From assembly GCF_026196735.1 (NCBI RefSeq), contig NZ_JAPHUF010000014.1, positions 1 to 64,000 of the forward strand: a DNA stretch of 64,000 nt, read 5' to 3'. Of the stretch, positions 779 through 40,778 are shown piece by piece. Within the stretch, counting starts at the first letter, position 1. Every line of letters starts with the position of its first letter. The notes below the pieces were generated by a model. It saw only the letters and a program-made list of their open reading frames with translations. It was not told the origin of the DNA and searched no databases. The position numbers were made by a program, and so were the translations under genes. The stretch comes from Sulfurimonas sp. GTDB taxonomy: Bacteria; Campylobacterota; Campylobacteria; Campylobacterales; Sulfurimonadaceae.

Positions 779-3700
779 TTAGCTATTTTTTCTAAACTTT
801 GAGACAAGAACATAAAAAAGTGGAATAAACACTATAGCCAAGAAAGTAGCTGCTAACATTCCACCCACAACTCCAGTTCCTATAGAATGCCTACTTGCCG
901 CTCCTGCTCCACTACTCAAAGCAAGTGGAATAACTCCTAGTGTGAAAGCAAGTGAAGTCATAATAATCGGGCGCAGACGAATTTTTGCAGCCTCGATAAC
1001 CGCATCATATATCTTCATTCCCTGCTCTTGTTTTTGCATTGCAAACTCTACAATTAAGATTGCATTTTTAGCCGAGAGTCCTGCTAAAACAAGGATACCT
1101 ATCTGAAAATATATATCATTTTCAAGTCCTCTTATGTGATTAGCTACAACCGCACCAAAAACTCCAAACGGTACTGCCAATATAACAGATATTGGCATAA
1201 GCCATCTCTCATACTGAGCAGCTAAAATTAGATACAAAAAGATTATGCCAAATATAAAAGCCATACTTCCTGCACTAGAAATCTGCTTCTCCTGATATGC
1301 CGTTCCAATCCAGCTAATAGTATATCCTTGAGGCAGAACCTCATTTGTGACTTCTTCTATGGCCTTTAGTGCATCTCCAGAGCTGTAACCAAGAGCAGGT
1401 TGACCTGAGACTTTAGCCGCACTAAAGAGGTTAAACCTCTCAACCAAATCAGCACTTACTATCTGTTTTAGCTCTACAAAAGAGCTAATAGGAAGCATCT
1501 CGCCTTTGTTATCTCTGACATATATTTTATTTAAATCATCAGGACTTTTTCTAAACGACTCCTCAGCTTGCATATTTACCATATATGTTCTGCCCATAAG
1601 ATTAAAATCGTTTATATAATAACTTCCAAGTGTTGCATTTAGAGTCTGATAAACATGGTCTAAATCAACCCCTTTAGACTTAACTTTTGCACTATCTACA
1701 ATAACCTTGTATTTTGGTACATTAGTATTTAAAGTACTTCTTACTCCTGCTAATTCCTCTCTCTCATTACCTTTTTTGATAATTTCATTTACATATTTTT
1801 GAAGTTCTTTAATATCACCGCCCGTTCTATCTTGAACATATAGATCAAATCCGCCTGCTATACCCATGCCCCTAATGGGAGGGGGTACAACACCAAAAGA
1901 GAAACCATCACTTGTAGCAGAGAGTTTTTTACCCATTTGCGAAGCTATATATGATGCATGCTGATGCGGTTCTTTTCTCTCATCCCATGGCTGTAATTTT
2001 AAAATTGTAGCTGCCGAATTTGTTCTAAGTGAAAAAGTTACAAAATCTATCCCGGCAAACTGAACTATATTTTTTATACTCTCTTTGTCTTTTGAAGTAA
2101 TATCATAAATCTCAGAAGTCAAAGCATCTGTTCTGCTAAGAGATGAACCTGGAGGATTGTAACTAAATACAAAGACCGTACCTTTGTCTTCAGTAGGAAC
2201 AAGACCTGTCTTTAAAGAATTGAACATGTCATAAGTTATATATATAAGTCCGCCAAAAAGAAGCATACTTAAAAATGCATATCTTATAGTCAGTTTTAAA
2301 GCTTTTGAGTATCCTCTTGTAGCAAATTCAAAAAAATTGTTAAACCATTTGAAAAAGTACTTTGGCTCTTTATGTGTCGGTTTTAACATCAGTGCACAAA
2401 GTGCAGGAGTAAGAGTAAGCGCCACAAGCCCCGATATTGCCAAAGATATAACTATGGTCACGGCAAACTGCCTGTACATCTCACCACTAAGCCCGCCTAA
2501 AAACGCAACGGGAATAAATACCGCCGAGAGAACAAGCACAATTGCAACAAGCGCACCTGAGACCTCTTTCATGGCCACAAATGAAGCTTCCATTGGCGAG
2601 AGTCCTTCTTTTATATGTCTCTCAACATTTTCTATAACAATAATCGCATCATCAACAACTATCCCAATTGCCAACACAAGCCCAAAAAGAGTAAGCAGGT
2701 TAATACTAAAACCTAATATATACATCCCTACAAAAGCACCGATAATTGAAACAGGAACAGCCAAGATAGGTATAAGGGTAGCTCTCCAATTTTGTAAAAA
2801 TAGATATATAATAAGTACAACCAGAATAATTGCTTCTATAAAAGTCTTAATAACCTCGTTTATTGAGAGTTCCACAAATTCCGTAATATCATAAGGTATC
2901 TCATATTCAACATCTTCAACAAAGTTCTCGCTTATTGAAGCAACAGTTTCTCTTATATTTTTTGCAGTCTCAATTGCATTTGCACCGCTTTGCAAAAATA
3001 TTGCCACCGGAACGGCAGGTGAGTTGTTTAGTTTGTTTTTCATTGCGTAGCTTTGAGAACCAAGCTCTATCGTAGCGACATCTTTAAGTTTAAGAGAACT
3101 TCCGTCTTCATTTGCTCTTACAATAATCTCTGAAAACTCCGAAGGGTCGCTAAACCTCTCTTGCGTCTCAAGTGTATAGGTAAACATCTCATTTGCGGAT
3201 ACCGGTTCAGCAGATAGTTTTCCTGCTGCGTATTGTTCGTTTTGCTCTCTTATTGCCAAAACCAAATCATTTACAGTAAGCGAATACTTCTTGAGTTTTA
3301 ACGGGTCAATCCAGACTCTCATCGAGTAATCTTTTGCACCGAAAATTGTTACATCACCCACCCCTTTGACTCTTTTTAAATCATCAACAATATTCATAAG
3401 AGCATAGTTAGAGAGATAAGTCACATCCTTTGTCTGTTTGGGAGAGTATAAGATAACCACTTGAAGCATATCCGGCGATTTCTCAGCAACTCTTACACCT
3501 TGTCTTTGAACCTGCTCGGGAAGTTTTGAGAGTGCGGCTTGAACACGGTTGTTTACATCTATCTTTGCATCATCAGGATTTGTTCCAACTTCAAAAAATA
3601 TACTTATACTAAGAACTCCGTTATCTGCGGAAAGAGAACTCATATAGAGCATATCTTTTGCTCCGTTTATCTCTTGTTCAAGAGGTGCTGCAACTGTTTT

Positions 3701-3877
3701 AGAGATAGTATCGGCACTAGCCCCCGGATAAGAAGTTGAAACAACTATCTGCGGCGGTACTACTCTTGGATACTCTCCAATAGGCAGAGACATCATTGAG
3801 ATAATACCTGCAAGTACGATAATAATAGCAATTACAGATGCAAAAATAGGTCTTTTTATAAAAAAAGCAGAAAACAT
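779..3877 (-). CDS. RND efflux pump, inner-membrane transporter (HAE1/AcrB type)
   Basis: This 1032-residue protein has the size and architecture of AcrB/MexB-type pumps: an N-terminal membrane helix (FFIKRPIFASVIAIIIVLAG), a large periplasmic loop, a block of helices from about residue 335, a second periplasmic loop and C-terminal helices. The proton-relay signature in TM4 is visible as GIVVDDAIIVIENVER, with the paired Asp residues. It would drive drug, bile or solvent efflux using the proton-motive force. It is the third gene of an operon with a channel and an adaptor; its ATG lies 1 nt after the adaptor stop and its GGAAGG ribosome site is inside the adaptor gene. The substrate cannot be read from sequence. 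Confidence 0.93.
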   Translation of the reverse strand: MFSAFFIKRPIFASVIAIIIVLAGIISMMSLPIGEYPRVVPPQIVVSTSYPGASADTISKTVAAPLEQEINGAKDMLYMSSLSADNGVLSISIFFEVGTNPDDAKIDVNNRVQAALSKLPEQVQRQGVRVAEKSPDMLQVVILYSPKQTKDVTYLSNYALMNIVDDLKRVKGVGDVTIFGAKDYSMRVWIDPLKLKKYSLTVNDLVLAIREQNEQYAAGKLSAEPVSANEMFTYTLETQERFSDPSEFSEIIVRANEDGSSLKLKDVATIELGSQSYAMKNKLNNSPAVPVAIFLQSGANAIETAKNIRETVASISENFVEDVEYEIPYDITEFVELSINEVIKTFIEAIILVVLIIYLFLQNWRATLIPILAVPVSIIGAFVGMYILGFSINLLTLFGLVLAIGIVVDDAIIVIENVERHIKEGLSPMEASFVAMKEVSGALVAIVLVLSAVFIPVAFLGGLSGEMYRQFAVTIVISLAISGLVALTLTPALCALMLKPTHKEPKYFFKWFNNFFEFATRGYSKALKLTIRYAFLSMLLFGGLIYITYDMFNSLKTGLVPTEDKGTVFVFSYNPPGSSLSRTDALTSEIYDITSKDKESIKNIVQFAGIDFVTFSLRTNSAATILKLQPWDERKEPHQHASYIASQMGKKLSATSDGFSFGVVPPPIRGMGIAGGFDLYVQDRTGGDIKELQKYVNEIIKKGNEREELAGVRSTLNTNVPKYKVIVDSAKVKSKGVDLDHVYQTLNATLGSYYINDFNLMGRTYMVNMQAEESFRKSPDDLNKIYVRDNKGEMLPISSFVELKQIVSADLVERFNLFSAAKVSGQPALGYSSGDALKAIEEVTNEVLPQGYTISWIGTAYQEKQISSAGSMAFIFGIIFLYLILAAQYERWLMPISVILAVPFGVFGAVVANHIRGLENDIYFQIGILVLAGLSAKNAILIVEFAMQKQEQGMKIYDAVIEAAKIRLRPIIMTSLAFTLGVIPLALSSGAGAASRHSIGTGVVGGMLAATFLAIVFIPLFYVLVSKFRKNS

Positions 3878-3878
3878 A

Positions 3879-4979
3879 TCAATTGCCTTCCATAATAGCT
3901 ACTTTACTCTTTGGTCTTAGTTTTGCTATGTTGCTTACTACAATGCTTTCTCCCTCATTTAAGCCCTTAGAGACTAATGCCAAACCATCTGTTACTTGTA
4001 AAACTTCAACTGCGCGCATAGATATTTCGCCATTTTTAACAACATAAACCATCAACGCTTCAGGAGTTTTTATAAGTGCATTTTGCGGGATTTTTACAAC
4101 ATTTTCATAGCTAAACCCATCCATACTAAGCTCAACATAAGAGCCTACAACCAATTCTTTGTTTTGATTTTTAAAAGTCGCTCTAAGCAAAAGAGTATCT
4201 GTTTTAAGATCTAGTTTTGGAGCTATATAATCAACTATACCGATATATTTTTTTGCACCAAGGTTAATGGTAACTTCTGCACCTGTTTTTATTTGCGCCT
4301 TATATTTTAATATATCAACACTTGGTACGGAAAATTCAGCATATATACTCTCTAAGGAAGTGATAGTAGCAAGATTTGCATTTTGCGCATCAAAGTCAAT
4401 ATAACTTCCCACATCACTATTACTCATTCCAATCATGCCGCTTATAGGAGCTTTAATGGTTGTATAACTATAATTTAGCTCAGCCTTTTGAGCTATCGCC
4501 TTTGCCTTTTGCACCTCAGCCTTTGCGTCATCAAAAGCATATAAAAGCTCATCTCTTTGCTGCTTGCTTATTGCGCTGTTTTTAAATAGATACTTACCTC
4601 TATCCCAATCATTTGCAGCTTTGTTGAAGTTAGCCTCGGCTTTTAAAAATGCTGCTTTTGCTTCATCAAGTGCAGCTTTATACTCATCTTTTTCAAGTTC
4701 GTAAATAATCTCACCCTCTTTTACAAATGCTCCTTCTGTAAAATTCTTTATTTGTAAAATTCCTCTTACTCTAGCAACAATATCCACTTCTTTGAAGGGT
4801 TTTAATACAGCAGAATAACTTTTTGTGAAATCAACTTTTTCATATTTGATTATTTGAACTTTTACCGGCAGTGGCGGCATCTTAGGCATTGTCGACTGAG
4901 TTGAGGCAGCGTTTTTTTCATCACTGCACCCTATAAAAAGTAGTGACATCACTACTAACAATAATGCTAAATTTTTCAT
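3879..4979 (-). CDS. RND efflux periplasmic adaptor lipoprotein (membrane fusion protein)
   Basis: This 366-residue protein begins with a lipoprotein signal peptide (lipobox LFIGC, acylated Cys18). It continues with the beta-barrel/lipoyl/alpha-hairpin/lipoyl layout of AcrA-type adaptors: lipoyl halves around GAFVKEGEIIYELEKDEY and TTIKAPISGMIG enclose an Ala/Lys-rich coiled hairpin at about residues 105-165. It links the inner-membrane pump to the outer-membrane channel. The start ATG directly abuts the stop codon of the upstream channel gene, with AAGGAG nine nucleotides before it, so translation of the two is coupled. Confidence 0.92.
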   Translation of the reverse strand: MKNLALLLVVMSLLFIGCSDEKNAASTQSTMPKMPPLPVKVQIIKYEKVDFTKSYSAVLKPFKEVDIVARVRGILQIKNFTEGAFVKEGEIIYELEKDEYKAALDEAKAAFLKAEANFNKAANDWDRGKYLFKNSAISKQQRDELLYAFDDAKAEVQKAKAIAQKAELNYSYTTIKAPISGMIGMSNSDVGSYIDFDAQNANLATITSLESIYAEFSVPSVDILKYKAQIKTGAEVTINLGAKKYIGIVDYIAPKLDLKTDTLLLRATFKNQNKELVVGSYVELSMDGFSYENVVKIPQNALIKTPEALMVYVVKNGEISMRAVEVLQVTDGLALVSKGLNEGESIVVSNIAKLRPKSKVAIMEGN

Positions 4980-37343: not shown

Positions 37344-37724
37344 ATGGAAGAAAAAAGTGGAGATTCAACCCCTGGGGTGTGTTTTTTAGTAAATGCAGGT
37401 GAGGGAACTATAGATGATAACGATGATGAAACAGTTCTACATGTCAATATAACAAGTGTCAATACAGTAGAGGGTGACTTGGATGATAATAATCAACTGA
37501 CATTTATCATTGGAGCTTCAAGAGAGTTAAAAGACACAGAGTCCGTAACACTAAACCTTAACATAAATGATATCTCAACTGATGGTTCTGATTATGGATT
37601 TTTAAGCCAAGACACCATAACCCTAAACTCAACTAACCAATACCAGACAATCACACTTGATGTATTTGGAGATGAAGTTATAGCAAATAATTATCTACAT
37701 GTAGATATGAAAGAGGTGGCGTGA
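37344..37724 (+). pseudogene. 3' fragment of a Calx-beta-type adhesin gene fused to REP copy 1
   Basis: The frame starts at ATG 37344, 7 bp before the REP repeat, with a GGGGTG ribosome-like site. It reads through the repeat (EKSGDSTPGV) into foreign-looking protein sequence: VNAGEGTIDDNDDET, VTLNLNINDISTDGSDYGF and ITLNSTNQYQTITLDVFGDE. This beta-rich, Asp-rich sequence resembles Calx-beta repeats of large secreted adhesins. The fragment is 126 residues long where such proteins are usually far larger, so it is best read as the tail of a truncated gene. Its stop overlaps the next start. Confidence 0.6.
37351..37378 (-). repeat. REP repeat, copy 1 (inverted)
   Basis: This copy is the exact 28-bp reverse complement of copy 2 at 38770-38797. 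Its core, read on the minus strand, is CAGGGGTTGAATCTCCAC followed by a T-run. It contains the small self-complementary CCCCAGGGG. The match stops on both sides of the 28 bp. Confidence 0.85.
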
Positions 37725-38656
37725 TGTTTTTATTATCATACATATTTATAGCTGTAGTTATAATCTATATAGGATTAGCGATTTATCTATATAAGCTAGC
37801 TATAAAATATTTTCCGCATAAAAAATCTATCTCAAAACTTGTACTGGCTTTTTTTATACTGCTTCCTACTTATGACATCATCATTACAAATATTTTAGGA
37901 GGATATTATTGCCTAACTACACCATCGACCTATATAAGTAAAAAAGTAGAGTATCCAGAAAGTATCTATTGGGAAGATAATGTTTATCCAGGATTTAACG
38001 AAGAAGATAGAAAGCTGATGATAAAAAACTATCTTGATGGAGTGCATCTAAAAACAATGGCACTAAATGGAGATGATGAAAAGGTATATGTTTATGTCAG
38101 AGATGTACCAGTTCAAAAGTATAATGAGATAAATACAAAACTGCTGCTCGAAACAAAAAAATATAACCAAATAAACAAGCAATTTACTAAAGAGCTACTT
38201 AAAGAGAATGAAGCTTTATGGCTAGAGCTAAGAGATAAATTTAATGAAGCTAGAAAAATAGTTGATGAGATAGAAAAACAACAAAACTCACTTATAGATA
38301 GTTGCTCTGTAAAAGAGAAAGTCTTTACCAAACAAACAATGCCAAAACTTAACTACACAGTAACTTTTAATGAAGTGAAACTAAACTTTTTTTCAAGAAA
38401 CTTTCTCTATTCAGATGTAACAAAAATAACGGACAACAGCGCAAATGAAGTAATAGCTCAAAATCAAAGGGTTATGAAACTACATTACAACATTATTCCT
38501 GCAATGAGTACTTATTATGATCAAGAATCTATGTGTGGTGATGGTTTATATTTTGAAAGAAATGTAATGCAAATGGGTGGATTATATAGGACGCGTAACC
38601 ATAAAATTTGGTTAAATGAAAAATTATACAAAAAATACATAAAAGGAGAAAAGTAA
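37724..38656 (+). CDS. Membrane protein of unknown function inside the REP-bracketed segment
   Basis: The protein has 310 residues from ATG 37724 (TGATG overlap with the previous frame, GAGGTGG upstream). It has two membrane helices at the N terminus (FLLSYIFIAVVIIYIGLAIYL and LVLAFFILLPTYDIIITNIL). An extracytoplasmic part follows, with a coiled region around 145-190 and Cys at 64, about 193 and about 275. No family recognised. It is the only intact gene between the two inverted REP copies, translation-coupled to an adhesin-like fragment upstream and to a truncated gene downstream. A partner, export or immunity role for a large secreted protein is speculation. Confidence 0.7.
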   Translation: MFLLSYIFIAVVIIYIGLAIYLYKLAIKYFPHKKSISKLVLAFFILLPTYDIIITNILGGYYCLTTPSTYISKKVEYPESIYWEDNVYPGFNEEDRKLMIKNYLDGVHLKTMALNGDDEKVYVYVRDVPVQKYNEINTKLLLETKKYNQINKQFTKELLKENEALWLELRDKFNEARKIVDEIEKQQNSLIDSCSVKEKVFTKQTMPKLNYTVTFNEVKLNFFSRNFLYSDVTKITDNSANEVIAQNQRVMKLHYNIIPAMSTYYDQESMCGDGLYFERNVMQMGGLYRTRNHKIWLNEKLYKKYIKGEK

Positions 38657-38657
38657 A

Positions 38658-38783
38658 ATGGAAGCAAATGCAGATACATTAGTAGTAATGGGGATTATTT
38701 CAGACAAGGTATATGAAAGTTACTACTTTCAAGATGAAGTTAATCAAAATGGAAGTAAGGTAGAAATAGACCCCAGGGGTTGA
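38658..38783 (+). pseudogene. 5' fragment of a gene cut by REP copy 2
   Basis: The frame starts at ATG 38658, one base after the preceding stop, with AAGGAG nine nt upstream, so it has a real start. It encodes 37 native residues (METs at 1 and 11; VVMGIISDKVYESYYF) and then runs into the REP repeat, adding DPRG and a stop. The original product is not recognisable, but the strong start shows that a longer gene was truncated. Confidence 0.55.
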
Positions 38784-38797
38784 ATCTCCACTTTTTT
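38770..38797 (+). repeat. REP repeat, copy 2
   Basis: The 28-bp copy begins ACCCCAGGGGTTGAATC and ends in TTTTTT. It is identical, inverted, to copy 1 and similar to copy 3. It is the left flank of the RAYT gene, 106 bp upstream of its start. It also supplies the stop codon of the truncated frame at 38658. Confidence 0.85.
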
Positions 38798-38903: not shown

Positions 38904-39677
38904 ATGCCAACAAAACCACGAGTAGACTTTGCCGGATATCATCACACAATCAATAGAGGAGTGAATCGTTGTAATATTTTTAATAATAATGGTGACAAAG
39001 ATACATTTCTAAAAATAATAAATAAAACAGCTACAATACATAAAGTCATTTTACACGATTTTGTTCTCATGGATAATCACTACCACCTTCTTATAGAGAC
39101 ACAAAAAGAAAATCTTTCAACTTTTATGCGCATTATAAATGCAAATTATGCTCAATATTTTAATAAAAGATATCAAAGAAGTGGACATTTATGGCAAGAT
39201 CGATACAAGTCTAAATATATTACTTCTGAAGATTATTTATATACACTTTTAAGATACATAGAAAACAATCCCATTGAAGCAGGACTTTGTGTGAATATAG
39301 GAGATTATCCATATACTTTTGCTTCTTATATATTCAACTCAAAAAAAATCTACCCCTCATTTAATGAATCCATACTATTAAAAGAGTTTGACATAAAAAC
39401 ATTGAGTCAATTTTTAGATAAATCAATTATGGAAGATGAAATAAAGTACCTCAAAGAAAGGCAAAAAGAAAAAATCGAGAAAGTAGAGAATACTCTAAAA
39501 ATTAGCTGTTGTAAACTACTTGAAGAGCACTTTTACTGCACTGAAACAAAGCTAGAAAGAAACTTAGGCATATTAAACGCTTATCTTGATGGATACACTC
39601 AGTCAAATATTGCCATATACTTAAATGTATCAAAATCATTAATATCAAAAGTAATAAAAATGGATATTCAATCTTAA
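38904..39677 (+). CDS. REP-associated tyrosine transposase (RAYT, Y1/HUH family)
   Basis: The protein has 257 residues from ATG 38904 (MPTKPRVDFAGYHHTINRG). It has the HUH metal motif MDNHYHLLIE (His59, His61), the catalytic tyrosine region NYAQYFNKRYQRSGHLWQDRYKS, and RYIENNPIEAGL, all typical of IS200-like RAYTs. The C terminus ends in an HTH-like helix pair (TQSNIAIYLNVSKSLISKVIK). RAYTs nick single-stranded REP hairpins and spread them in genomes. Direct REP copies at 38770 and 39681 flank this gene, with an inverted copy further left, as expected for its substrate. Confidence 0.9.
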   Translation: MPTKPRVDFAGYHHTINRGVNRCNIFNNNGDKDTFLKIINKTATIHKVILHDFVLMDNHYHLLIETQKENLSTFMRIINANYAQYFNKRYQRSGHLWQDRYKSKYITSEDYLYTLLRYIENNPIEAGLCVNIGDYPYTFASYIFNSKKIYPSFNESILLKEFDIKTLSQFLDKSIMEDEIKYLKERQKEKIEKVENTLKISCCKLLEEHFYCTETKLERNLGILNAYLDGYTQSNIAIYLNVSKSLISKVIKMDIQS

Positions 39678-39680
39678 TCT

Positions 39681-39702
39681 CAGGGGTTGAATCTTCACTT
39701 TT
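39681..39702 (+). repeat. REP repeat, copy 3
   Basis: CAGGGGTTGAATCTTCACTT and two further T lie 3 bp beyond the RAYT stop codon. One mismatch (T for C) separates it from copy 2 over 22 bp; the preceding CCC of copy 2 is not kept. It is the right flank of the RAYT gene in the same orientation as copy 2. Confidence 0.8.
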
Positions 39703-39795: not shown

Positions 39796-40176
39796 ATGCT
39801 AAGATCAGAACTCATAAATAAAATCATACAAAGAAAAGAAAAGTTAAACATTACTATTGAAAATATTGCAAAATTGAGTAACCTCGGTATCAGAACTGTA
39901 AACAGATTCTTTGCCGGAGAAGATGTAAAACTAAGCACCATAGAATATATAACAAATTTATTGGGTGTTGATTTTGCCGGTAATGAGACAGTACCTCTAA
40001 AAAAACTACGACAAAACAGAGCAAAAGAAAAAGCAATTTTTATGGCTTCGTTAGTTCAAAGTACTTCGGCTCTTGAGATGCAAGGATTAGAAAAAAATAG
40101 TTTAGAAAAGATGATTCACAAATTTGAAAAAGAGTTTCTAACCGGTTCATATAAAGATAGACTTTGGATTGCATGA
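39796..40176 (+). CDS. HTH antitoxin-like regulator of the Fic gene
   Basis: The 126-residue protein begins with a helix-turn-helix (LNITIENIAKLSNLGIRTVNRFFAG) of the XRE-like type used by many antitoxins. The C-terminal half is Lys-rich and helical, with no recognisable Fic-inhibitory motif. AAGGA lies upstream of the ATG. Its stop overlaps the Fic gene start (ATGA), the typical order for antitoxin then toxin. It probably binds the twin sites at 39727-39775. Confidence 0.75.
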   Translation: MLRSELINKIIQRKEKLNITIENIAKLSNLGIRTVNRFFAGEDVKLSTIEYITNLLGVDFAGNETVPLKKLRQNRAKEKAIFMASLVQSTSALEMQGLEKNSLEKMIHKFEKEFLTGSYKDRLWIA

Positions 40177-40778
40177 TGATTGACAGCACGAAACCTATAG
40201 ATGATGCAACACCACTAGATGATACTTCAGGATTAAAACTATCCTCTTTAAAATCCTACTCATTAGAAGAAATATACATAAAAGAAGCCCAAAACATTGC
40301 AAATGCAACTTTGAAATACTTGTCTGCTAAACCAACTAAAAAAGATGCGCCCTTCAGTTACGAATGGCTGACAACTCTTCATCATGAAATGTTTAGTGAT
40401 GTATGGGAATGGGCAGGTAAATTAAGACATATTGAACTCTCTATTGGCATAAAAGCCTATCTAATCCCTGTTGAGTTAAAAAAACTATCTGATGATATAG
40501 CGTATTGGAATAAAAATAAAACATTTGACACATATGAAACAGCTACTAGAATCCATCATAGAGCAGTACAAATCCATCCTTTTCAAAATGGCAATGGAAG
40601 ATGGTCTAGAATGCTGGCAAATATTTATCTCAGACAAAATGGCTTAATGCCTGTTCGATGGCAAGAGGATTTACTGGCAAAAGAGAACTCTAAAAGAGAT
40701 GATTATATTAAAGCTCTGAAAAAAGCTGATAATGGCGACTATGCAGATTTAATACAGATGCATACTATTACCTATTAA
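40173..40778 (+). CDS. Fic/DOC-family protein, mobile mystery protein B-like
   Basis: The protein has 201 residues from ATG 40173 (or 40176). The N-terminal arrangement (IDDATPLDDTSGLK, then FSYEWLTTLHHEMFSDVWEWAGKLR) resembles the Fic subgroup called mobile mystery protein B. The active-site loop reads HPFQNGNGRWSR: the catalytic His135 is present, but the Mg-binding acidic residue before GNGR is Asn139. Fic enzymes transfer AMP or other groups to target proteins. The change may mean altered chemistry or an inactive protein; some members of this subgroup share it as far as I recall. It is translation-coupled to the HTH gene. Confidence 0.8.
   Translation: MMIDSTKPIDDATPLDDTSGLKLSSLKSYSLEEIYIKEAQNIANATLKYLSAKPTKKDAPFSYEWLTTLHHEMFSDVWEWAGKLRHIELSIGIKAYLIPVELKKLSDDIAYWNKNKTFDTYETATRIHHRAVQIHPFQNGNGRWSRMLANIYLRQNGLMPVRWQEDLLAKENSKRDDYIKALKKADNGDYADLIQMHTITY

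What the first reader, a model, noticed from the sequence alone, without database searches (positions are those of the whole stretch)
37351..38797. Perfect 28-bp inverted REP pair encloses a 1.39 kb segment with a gene fragment against each repeat
The repeats at 37351-37378 and 38770-38797 are exact reverse complements over 28 bp, and the match ends abruptly at both ends. Inside are a 3' fragment of a Calx-beta-like adhesin (left), an intact membrane-protein gene, and a 5' fragment of another gene (right) that joins the repeat after 37 codons. A plain REP insertion would leave the same gene on both sides. Here each fragment lies against a different repeat and nothing continues it outside, as if the block had been moved as a composite between two REPs. 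A RAYT acting on REP pairs to carry passenger DNA would be a new type of cargo element.
Basis: partly seen in the sequence, partly recalled or inferred. Interest (0 to 1): 0.75.

Follow-up and report, generated by a model that had tools for sequence, protein, structure and literature searches.

The report
Orphan immunity gene boxed by transposase-end repeats
A gene that probably protects a Sulfurimonas bacterium from a neighbour's toxin, with a broken toxin-gene stub on each side, sits between two mirror-image end repeats of an adjacent single-strand transposase; the same layout recurs in other species, which suggests (but does not prove) that this transposase family's end repeats help to move genes.

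Summary
The two 28-bp repeats are exact inverted copies, and the genome holds only three copies, all within 2.4 kb. They are the terminal repeats of the RAYT transposase gene beside them: in related species the same gene is flanked by inverted versions of this repeat. The enclosed block is an orphan toxin-immunity module: 3' tail of one secreted toxin/adhesin, an intact membrane protein, 5' head of the next toxin. Four relatives carry intact toxin-immunity-toxin arrays. About fifteen relatives have the two flanking genes as direct neighbours, so the block is an insertion, not a resident array with REPs added. The same layout recurs at other loci in other species (G069, G021; one-sided in G004), and similar modules in G079 and G081 are bounded by a second repeat family. 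Repeat pairs facing each other with their GGGG sides enclosed cargo without RAYT in 12 of 12 cases; pairs facing with GTGG enclosed RAYT or its remnant in 17 of 17. Whether the block moved as one RAYT-driven unit is not shown; deletion between repeats around a selected immunity gene is the main rival. New variant of a known kind (REPtron/REPIN-like) with gene-sized cargo.

The parts
37351..37378 (+). Repeat 1: solo RAYT right-end-type repeat (GTGG outward, GGGG towards the cargo)
37379..37724 (+). 3' tail of a secreted RTX/Calx-beta-type toxin or adhesin gene (ends ..HVDMKEVA*), toxin A stub
   Evidence: no Pfam hit
37713..37726 (+). GAGGTGGCGTGATG: conserved junction of toxin stop / ribosome-binding site / immunity start
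37721..38656 (+). Intact 311-aa membrane protein, immunity-like by position in intact arrays of relatives
   Evidence: model with N-terminal helices, pLDDT 73
38658..38769 (+). First 37 codons of the next toxin-type gene (toxin B stub), running into repeat 2
38770..38797 (-). Repeat 2: left end of the RAYT element, exact inverted copy of repeat 1
38904..39677 (+). RAYT, Y1 HUH transposase (Y1_Tnp; REP-associated tyrosine transposase, 79.9 bits against a cut-off of 80)
39660..39673 (+). Degenerate right end of the RAYT element (ATGGATATTCAATC)
39677..39698 (-). Repeat 3: diverged third copy, left-end orientation

Best explanation
The block is an orphan toxin-immunity module from a polymorphic toxin array (tail of toxin A, intact immunity-like membrane gene, head of toxin B), bounded by the ends of an IS-like RAYT element. 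Repeat 2 is the left end of the RAYT gene next to it; repeat 1 is a solo right end. Proposed working: the RAYT cuts single-stranded DNA at repeats lying in one orientation, so DNA between an upstream right end and the RAYT element can be carried along and inserted elsewhere; selection keeps copies whose passenger is useful, here an immunity gene, and the toxin stubs are by-products of the cut. Shown: module identity by layout, the repeats as RAYT ends, recurrence in other species, absence of the block from the ancestral locus. Inferred: the cutting and carrying step, movement as a unit, the immunity function.
For: RAYTs of relatives are flanked by inverted versions of this repeat. Same layout right end - toxin tail - immunity-like gene - toxin head - left end in G069 and G021 at other loci with other immunity-like genes; G004 has the right-hand half. 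Other cargo in the same layout: AhpC in G038, a 318-aa protein in G060, PhoD in G026, whose homologue in G062 stands without repeats. GGGG-inward pairs 12/12 without RAYT, GTGG-inward pairs 17/17 with RAYT or remnant. Hemerythrin and ctpA adjacent in about 15 relatives. In G069 nothing but repeat/RAYT-bounded DNA lies between rpoN and lpxH. The element spreads: near-identical ~190-bp deleted copies. G038 and G052 share a right end plus about 17 bp and then differ.
Against: No identical block at two loci and no clean with/without pair. Two complete neighbouring elements give GGGG-inward pairs anyway, and loci were chosen for carrying repeats. Several units (G021, G026, G065) lack a neighbouring RAYT. 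Modules in G079 and G081 are bounded by an unrelated repeat family, so one RAYT cannot explain all. The window RAYT's own right end is degenerate.
Confidence: 0.48

Rival explanations
1. Erosion with selection: a longer toxin-immunity segment arrived here by ordinary horizontal transfer; RAYT elements and repeats landed in the useless toxin genes, and deletions between repeats removed the outer parts, leaving the immunity gene between the two innermost repeats.
For: In all orphan modules found the intact gene is the immunity-like one and both toxins are stubs. Modules are bounded by two unrelated repeat families. G058 shows deletions at the same locus. REP-REP deletion is known from a cited case in Neisseria (reference list seen).
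Against: No toxin remnants outside the repeats in G000 or G069; complete, unrelated cargo genes occur in the same layout; needs two independent deletions ending at repeats in each case.
Confidence: 0.37
2. Coincidence of accessory DNA: RAYT elements insert independently on both sides of accessory genes because such regions tolerate insertions; the cargo was never moved by them.
For: Insertion islands are shared with other mobile genes (HTH-Fic, toxin-antitoxin pairs). Single-strand transposases insert with strand bias, which would give same-orientation neighbours.
Against: With 3-20 repeats per genome, repeats touching both edges of a module by chance have a probability of about 1e-7 or less; insertion into a gene should leave its other half outside, which is not seen.
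Confidence: 0.1
3. Cargo inserted into a pre-existing short repeat pair (REPIN-like) at this locus.
For: At the same locus G058 has a 10-bp perfect hairpin whose right arm matches repeat 3 plus its flank (18 of 21 bases; 2 of 2000 random windows score as well). Short GGGG-inward pairs of 105 and 126 bp exist.
Against: The left arm aligns ambiguously; gene fragments stop right at the repeats; G058 may itself be a deletion product.
Confidence: 0.05

Closest known systems
REPtron: RAYT/TnpA-REP gene flanked by inverted REPs (Nunvar 2010 PMC2817692; Corneloup 2021 PMC8266576; Quentin 2018 PMC6006769)
   Same: Y1 HUH transposase gene flanked by inverted repeats with a GT(A/G)G foot
   Different: Multi-copy, IS-like spread with deleted copies, low repeat number, weak hairpins, and gene-sized cargo next to it; published REPtrons are said not to transpose as a unit
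REPIN / BIME / HH dimer (Bertels and Rainey 2011 PMC3116915; Di Nocera 2013 PMC3733652)
   Same: Two repeats in inverted orientation with the GTRG foot outward
   Different: The spacer is 0.4-2 kb with genes instead of about 20-110 bp
Orphan immunity modules of polymorphic toxin and T6SS loci (PMC3482391; PMC5361080)
   Same: Immunity-like gene kept with toxin tail/head fragments, separated from its toxin
   Different: Ends coincide with transposase-end repeats, away from any toxin array
Composite (or IS26-type pseudo-compound) transposon (own knowledge)
   Same: Cargo between two element copies or ends, often in direct orientation
   Different: A single-strand HUH enzyme, for which no such composite was found in the papers searched

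Membership tests
RAYT / REPtron | Y1 transposase of the REP-associated type | tested here: met
   Pfam Y1_Tnp E 7e-17; NCBIfam REP_Tyr_transpos 79.9 bits, 0.1 below cut-off; HYH motif invariant in ten relatives
RAYT / REPtron | gene flanked by two inverted repeats | tested here: met
   clear in relatives; in the window the left end is intact and the right end degenerate
REP | GT(A/G)G foot | tested here: met
   GTGG in all main subtypes
REP | stable imperfect palindrome | tested here: not met
   folds no better than shuffles; about -2 kcal/mol
REP | high copy number in the host genome | tested here: not met
   3 copies in this genome; about 0-20 per relative
REPIN | inverted pair, foot outward | tested here: met
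   repeats 1 and 2; 12 such pairs in fetched loci
REPIN | short conserved spacer (about 20-110 bp) | tested here: not met
   spacer 1.39 kb here, 0.1-2.5 kb elsewhere
Orphan polymorphic toxin-immunity module | layout toxin tail - immunity - toxin head as in intact arrays | tested here: met
Orphan polymorphic toxin-immunity module | the protein neutralises a cognate toxin | not testable with these tools
   position only; no family or fold match
Composite transposon | block moves as one unit between loci | tested here: inconclusive
   ancestral locus lacks the block but no second copy was found; G038 and G052 differ behind a shared right end

The most novel reading that the evidence does not exclude
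In Sulfurimonas an IS-like RAYT family moves gene-sized passengers held between a right-end and a left-end repeat, and this route spreads orphan immunity genes (and defence genes) between species: a single-strand HUH transposase acting as a cassette shuttle for interbacterial competition.
Probability: 0.4. Interest if true: 0.8.

Novelty: new variant of a known kind. Interest (0 to 1): 0.6.

Why it matters
RAYTs are described as domesticated transposases that scatter short palindromes, without evidence that they move themselves or genes. Here a RAYT family has spread as an element and its ends repeatedly bracket complete or cut accessory genes, above all orphan immunity modules. If movement is confirmed, this gives a mechanism for how immunity genes travel without their toxins, and a natural system in which to test RAYT transposition.

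Tried and rejected
The 37-codon right fragment as a query: the hits are chance matches to FixH-like and MnmG proteins. Integron attC reading of the repeats: dropped because the repeats match RAYT ends. MAG-6 duplications as proof of co-mobilisation: dropped because the shared upstream flank is a truncated integrase-like gene and may be one platform in strain variants. G058 as a clean empty site: only suggestive. Fold search of the immunity-like protein: nothing with E below 0.001. RAYT against solved structures: one weak hit only. Direct orientation of neighbouring elements as proof of a composite: not used, since lagging-strand insertion bias would give it too.

Full report
Setting. The window lies in a Sulfurimonas-type genome (2.19 Mb, 25 contigs); the named records that carry relatives of its RAYT are mostly Sulfurimonas and Sulfurospirillum MAGs.

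Observation. The 28-bp repeats are exact inverted copies and the pair extends to 34 nt at 94%. A third copy (3 mismatches in 22 nt) lies at 39677-39698, directly after the stop codon of a RAYT gene at 38904-39677. The genome has no other copies. Chance is excluded for the window.

What the repeats are. In relatives (L058-L061) the RAYT gene is flanked by inverted repeats of the form TACACCCCTGTGATTGAATATCCACTTTT ... AAAAGTGGATATTCAATCACAGGGGTGTA. Subtypes differ (GTGGAGATTCAACCCCTGGGG, GTGGATATTCAATCACAGGGG, GTGGAGATTCATTCACAGGGG) but foot and layout are the same. So repeat 2 is the left end of the RAYT element, repeat 1 is a solo right end, and the cargo lies between their GGGG sides, outside both elements. 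The hairpins are weak and copy number is low, so I call them RAYT ends, REP-like, and do not file them as REPs.

What the cargo is. Relatives G113, G116, G039 and G129 carry intact arrays: RTX-type protein, small membrane protein or lipoprotein gene, next toxin-type protein (Lipase_3 or abhydrolase with RTX repeats in G113 and G116; DUF6973 with RTX-related domains in G129). The junction GAGGTGGCGT(N)ATG between toxin tail and small gene is shared by the window, G004, G021, G069, G113 and G129. The window block is thus toxin tail, intact immunity-like gene, toxin head. The function is inferred from position; no database family or fold matches.

Recurrence. G069 (rpoN-lpxH): deleted RAYT element, right end, toxin tail, membrane gene, 12-codon toxin head, left end, RAYT, right end; between the two housekeeping genes there is only this plus short repeat debris. 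G021 (after sbcC): right end, RTX tail, lipoprotein, roughly 80-codon toxin head, left end; 152 bp at its junction are 92% identical to the intact G129 array. G004: same order, right-hand repeat only. G079 and G081: modules bounded by a second repeat family. Other cargo in the same layout: AhpC/TSA in G038, a 318-aa protein in G060, PhoD in G026; the PhoD homologue of G062 stands without repeats beside another gene.

Orientation. Among neighbouring repeats 20-3000 bp apart, GTGG-inward pairs enclosed RAYT or a remnant in 17 of 17 cases and GGGG-inward pairs enclosed no RAYT in 12 of 12; 15 were in the same orientation. Two complete neighbouring elements would also give GGGG-inward pairs, and the loci were chosen because they carry repeats, so this supports the identification of ends more than it proves movement. 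The element does spread: four nearly identical deleted copies of about 190 bp in one MAG, and several RAYT ends with different right flanks in G049.

Locus history. In about fifteen relatives hemerythrin and ctpA are direct neighbours, so in G000 the cargo, the RAYT and an HTH-Fic pair are insertions. The sister G058 has at the same place a short hairpin that may be an emptied repeat pair, a decayed Fic gene and a different member of the immunity-like family: the locus is a hot spot. G038 and G052 share ileS, a deleted RAYT, its right end and about 17 further bases, then differ, as if the DNA behind a right end were exchangeable.

Mechanism. Published RAYTs cut single-stranded REP in one orientation and not the inverted copy (PMC8266576), and Nunvar and co-workers proposed that two same-orientation REPs with an inverted one between them form a circularising module (PMC2817692). 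The layout right end, cargo, left end, RAYT, right end is such a module with genes inside. That step is inferred. The rival, deletion between repeats around a selected immunity gene, explains the toxin stubs and the second repeat family, but less well the complete unrelated cargo and the lack of remnants outside.

Verdict. Real and not chance; new variant of a known kind; unit movement unproven. No paper found in the library describes gene cargo between RAYT ends; most subscription papers are not in that library.

Noticed in passing
window 39796-40778: HTH-Fic gene pair (mobile mystery protein B 168.6 bits, weak mystery A) next to repeat 3; the pair sits at other loci in many relatives and is decayed in G058.
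   Followed up: partly
L045 (G058) 3247-3975: Same hemerythrin-ctpA locus in a sister species carries a different member of the immunity-like membrane protein family, without toxin stubs.
   Followed up: partly
L048 (G081) both sides of the gene at 4209-4865; L047 (G079): A second, 83-bp double-hairpin repeat family (CTCGCTCCCATGCTCCAGCATGGGAG..TTCCCATCGGGGACGATGGGAACGAG) bounds orphan toxin-immunity modules, as direct copies in G081.
   Followed up: partly
L320 4118-4470 and 10710-11520; L315 9701-10491: An integron-integrase-like gene fragment is cut at the left end of a ~190-bp deleted RAYT element, in near-identical copies within one MAG.
   Followed up: partly
L175 151-1170; L315 2900-5812; L169 221-5041: Defence-type genes (TIR-TM, bSEFIR, a 1606-aa double helicase) lie against or between RAYT ends; the bSEFIR gene runs into the repeat.
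   Followed up: no
L176, L266, L288, L293 (downstream of ileS): The 3' side of ileS looks like a hot spot for repeat-bounded inserts in four species.
   Followed up: partly
window, 15 sites, e.g. 37696 and 39709: The palindrome TACATGTA is over-represented: 15 in the window against 1.3 expected.
   Followed up: no
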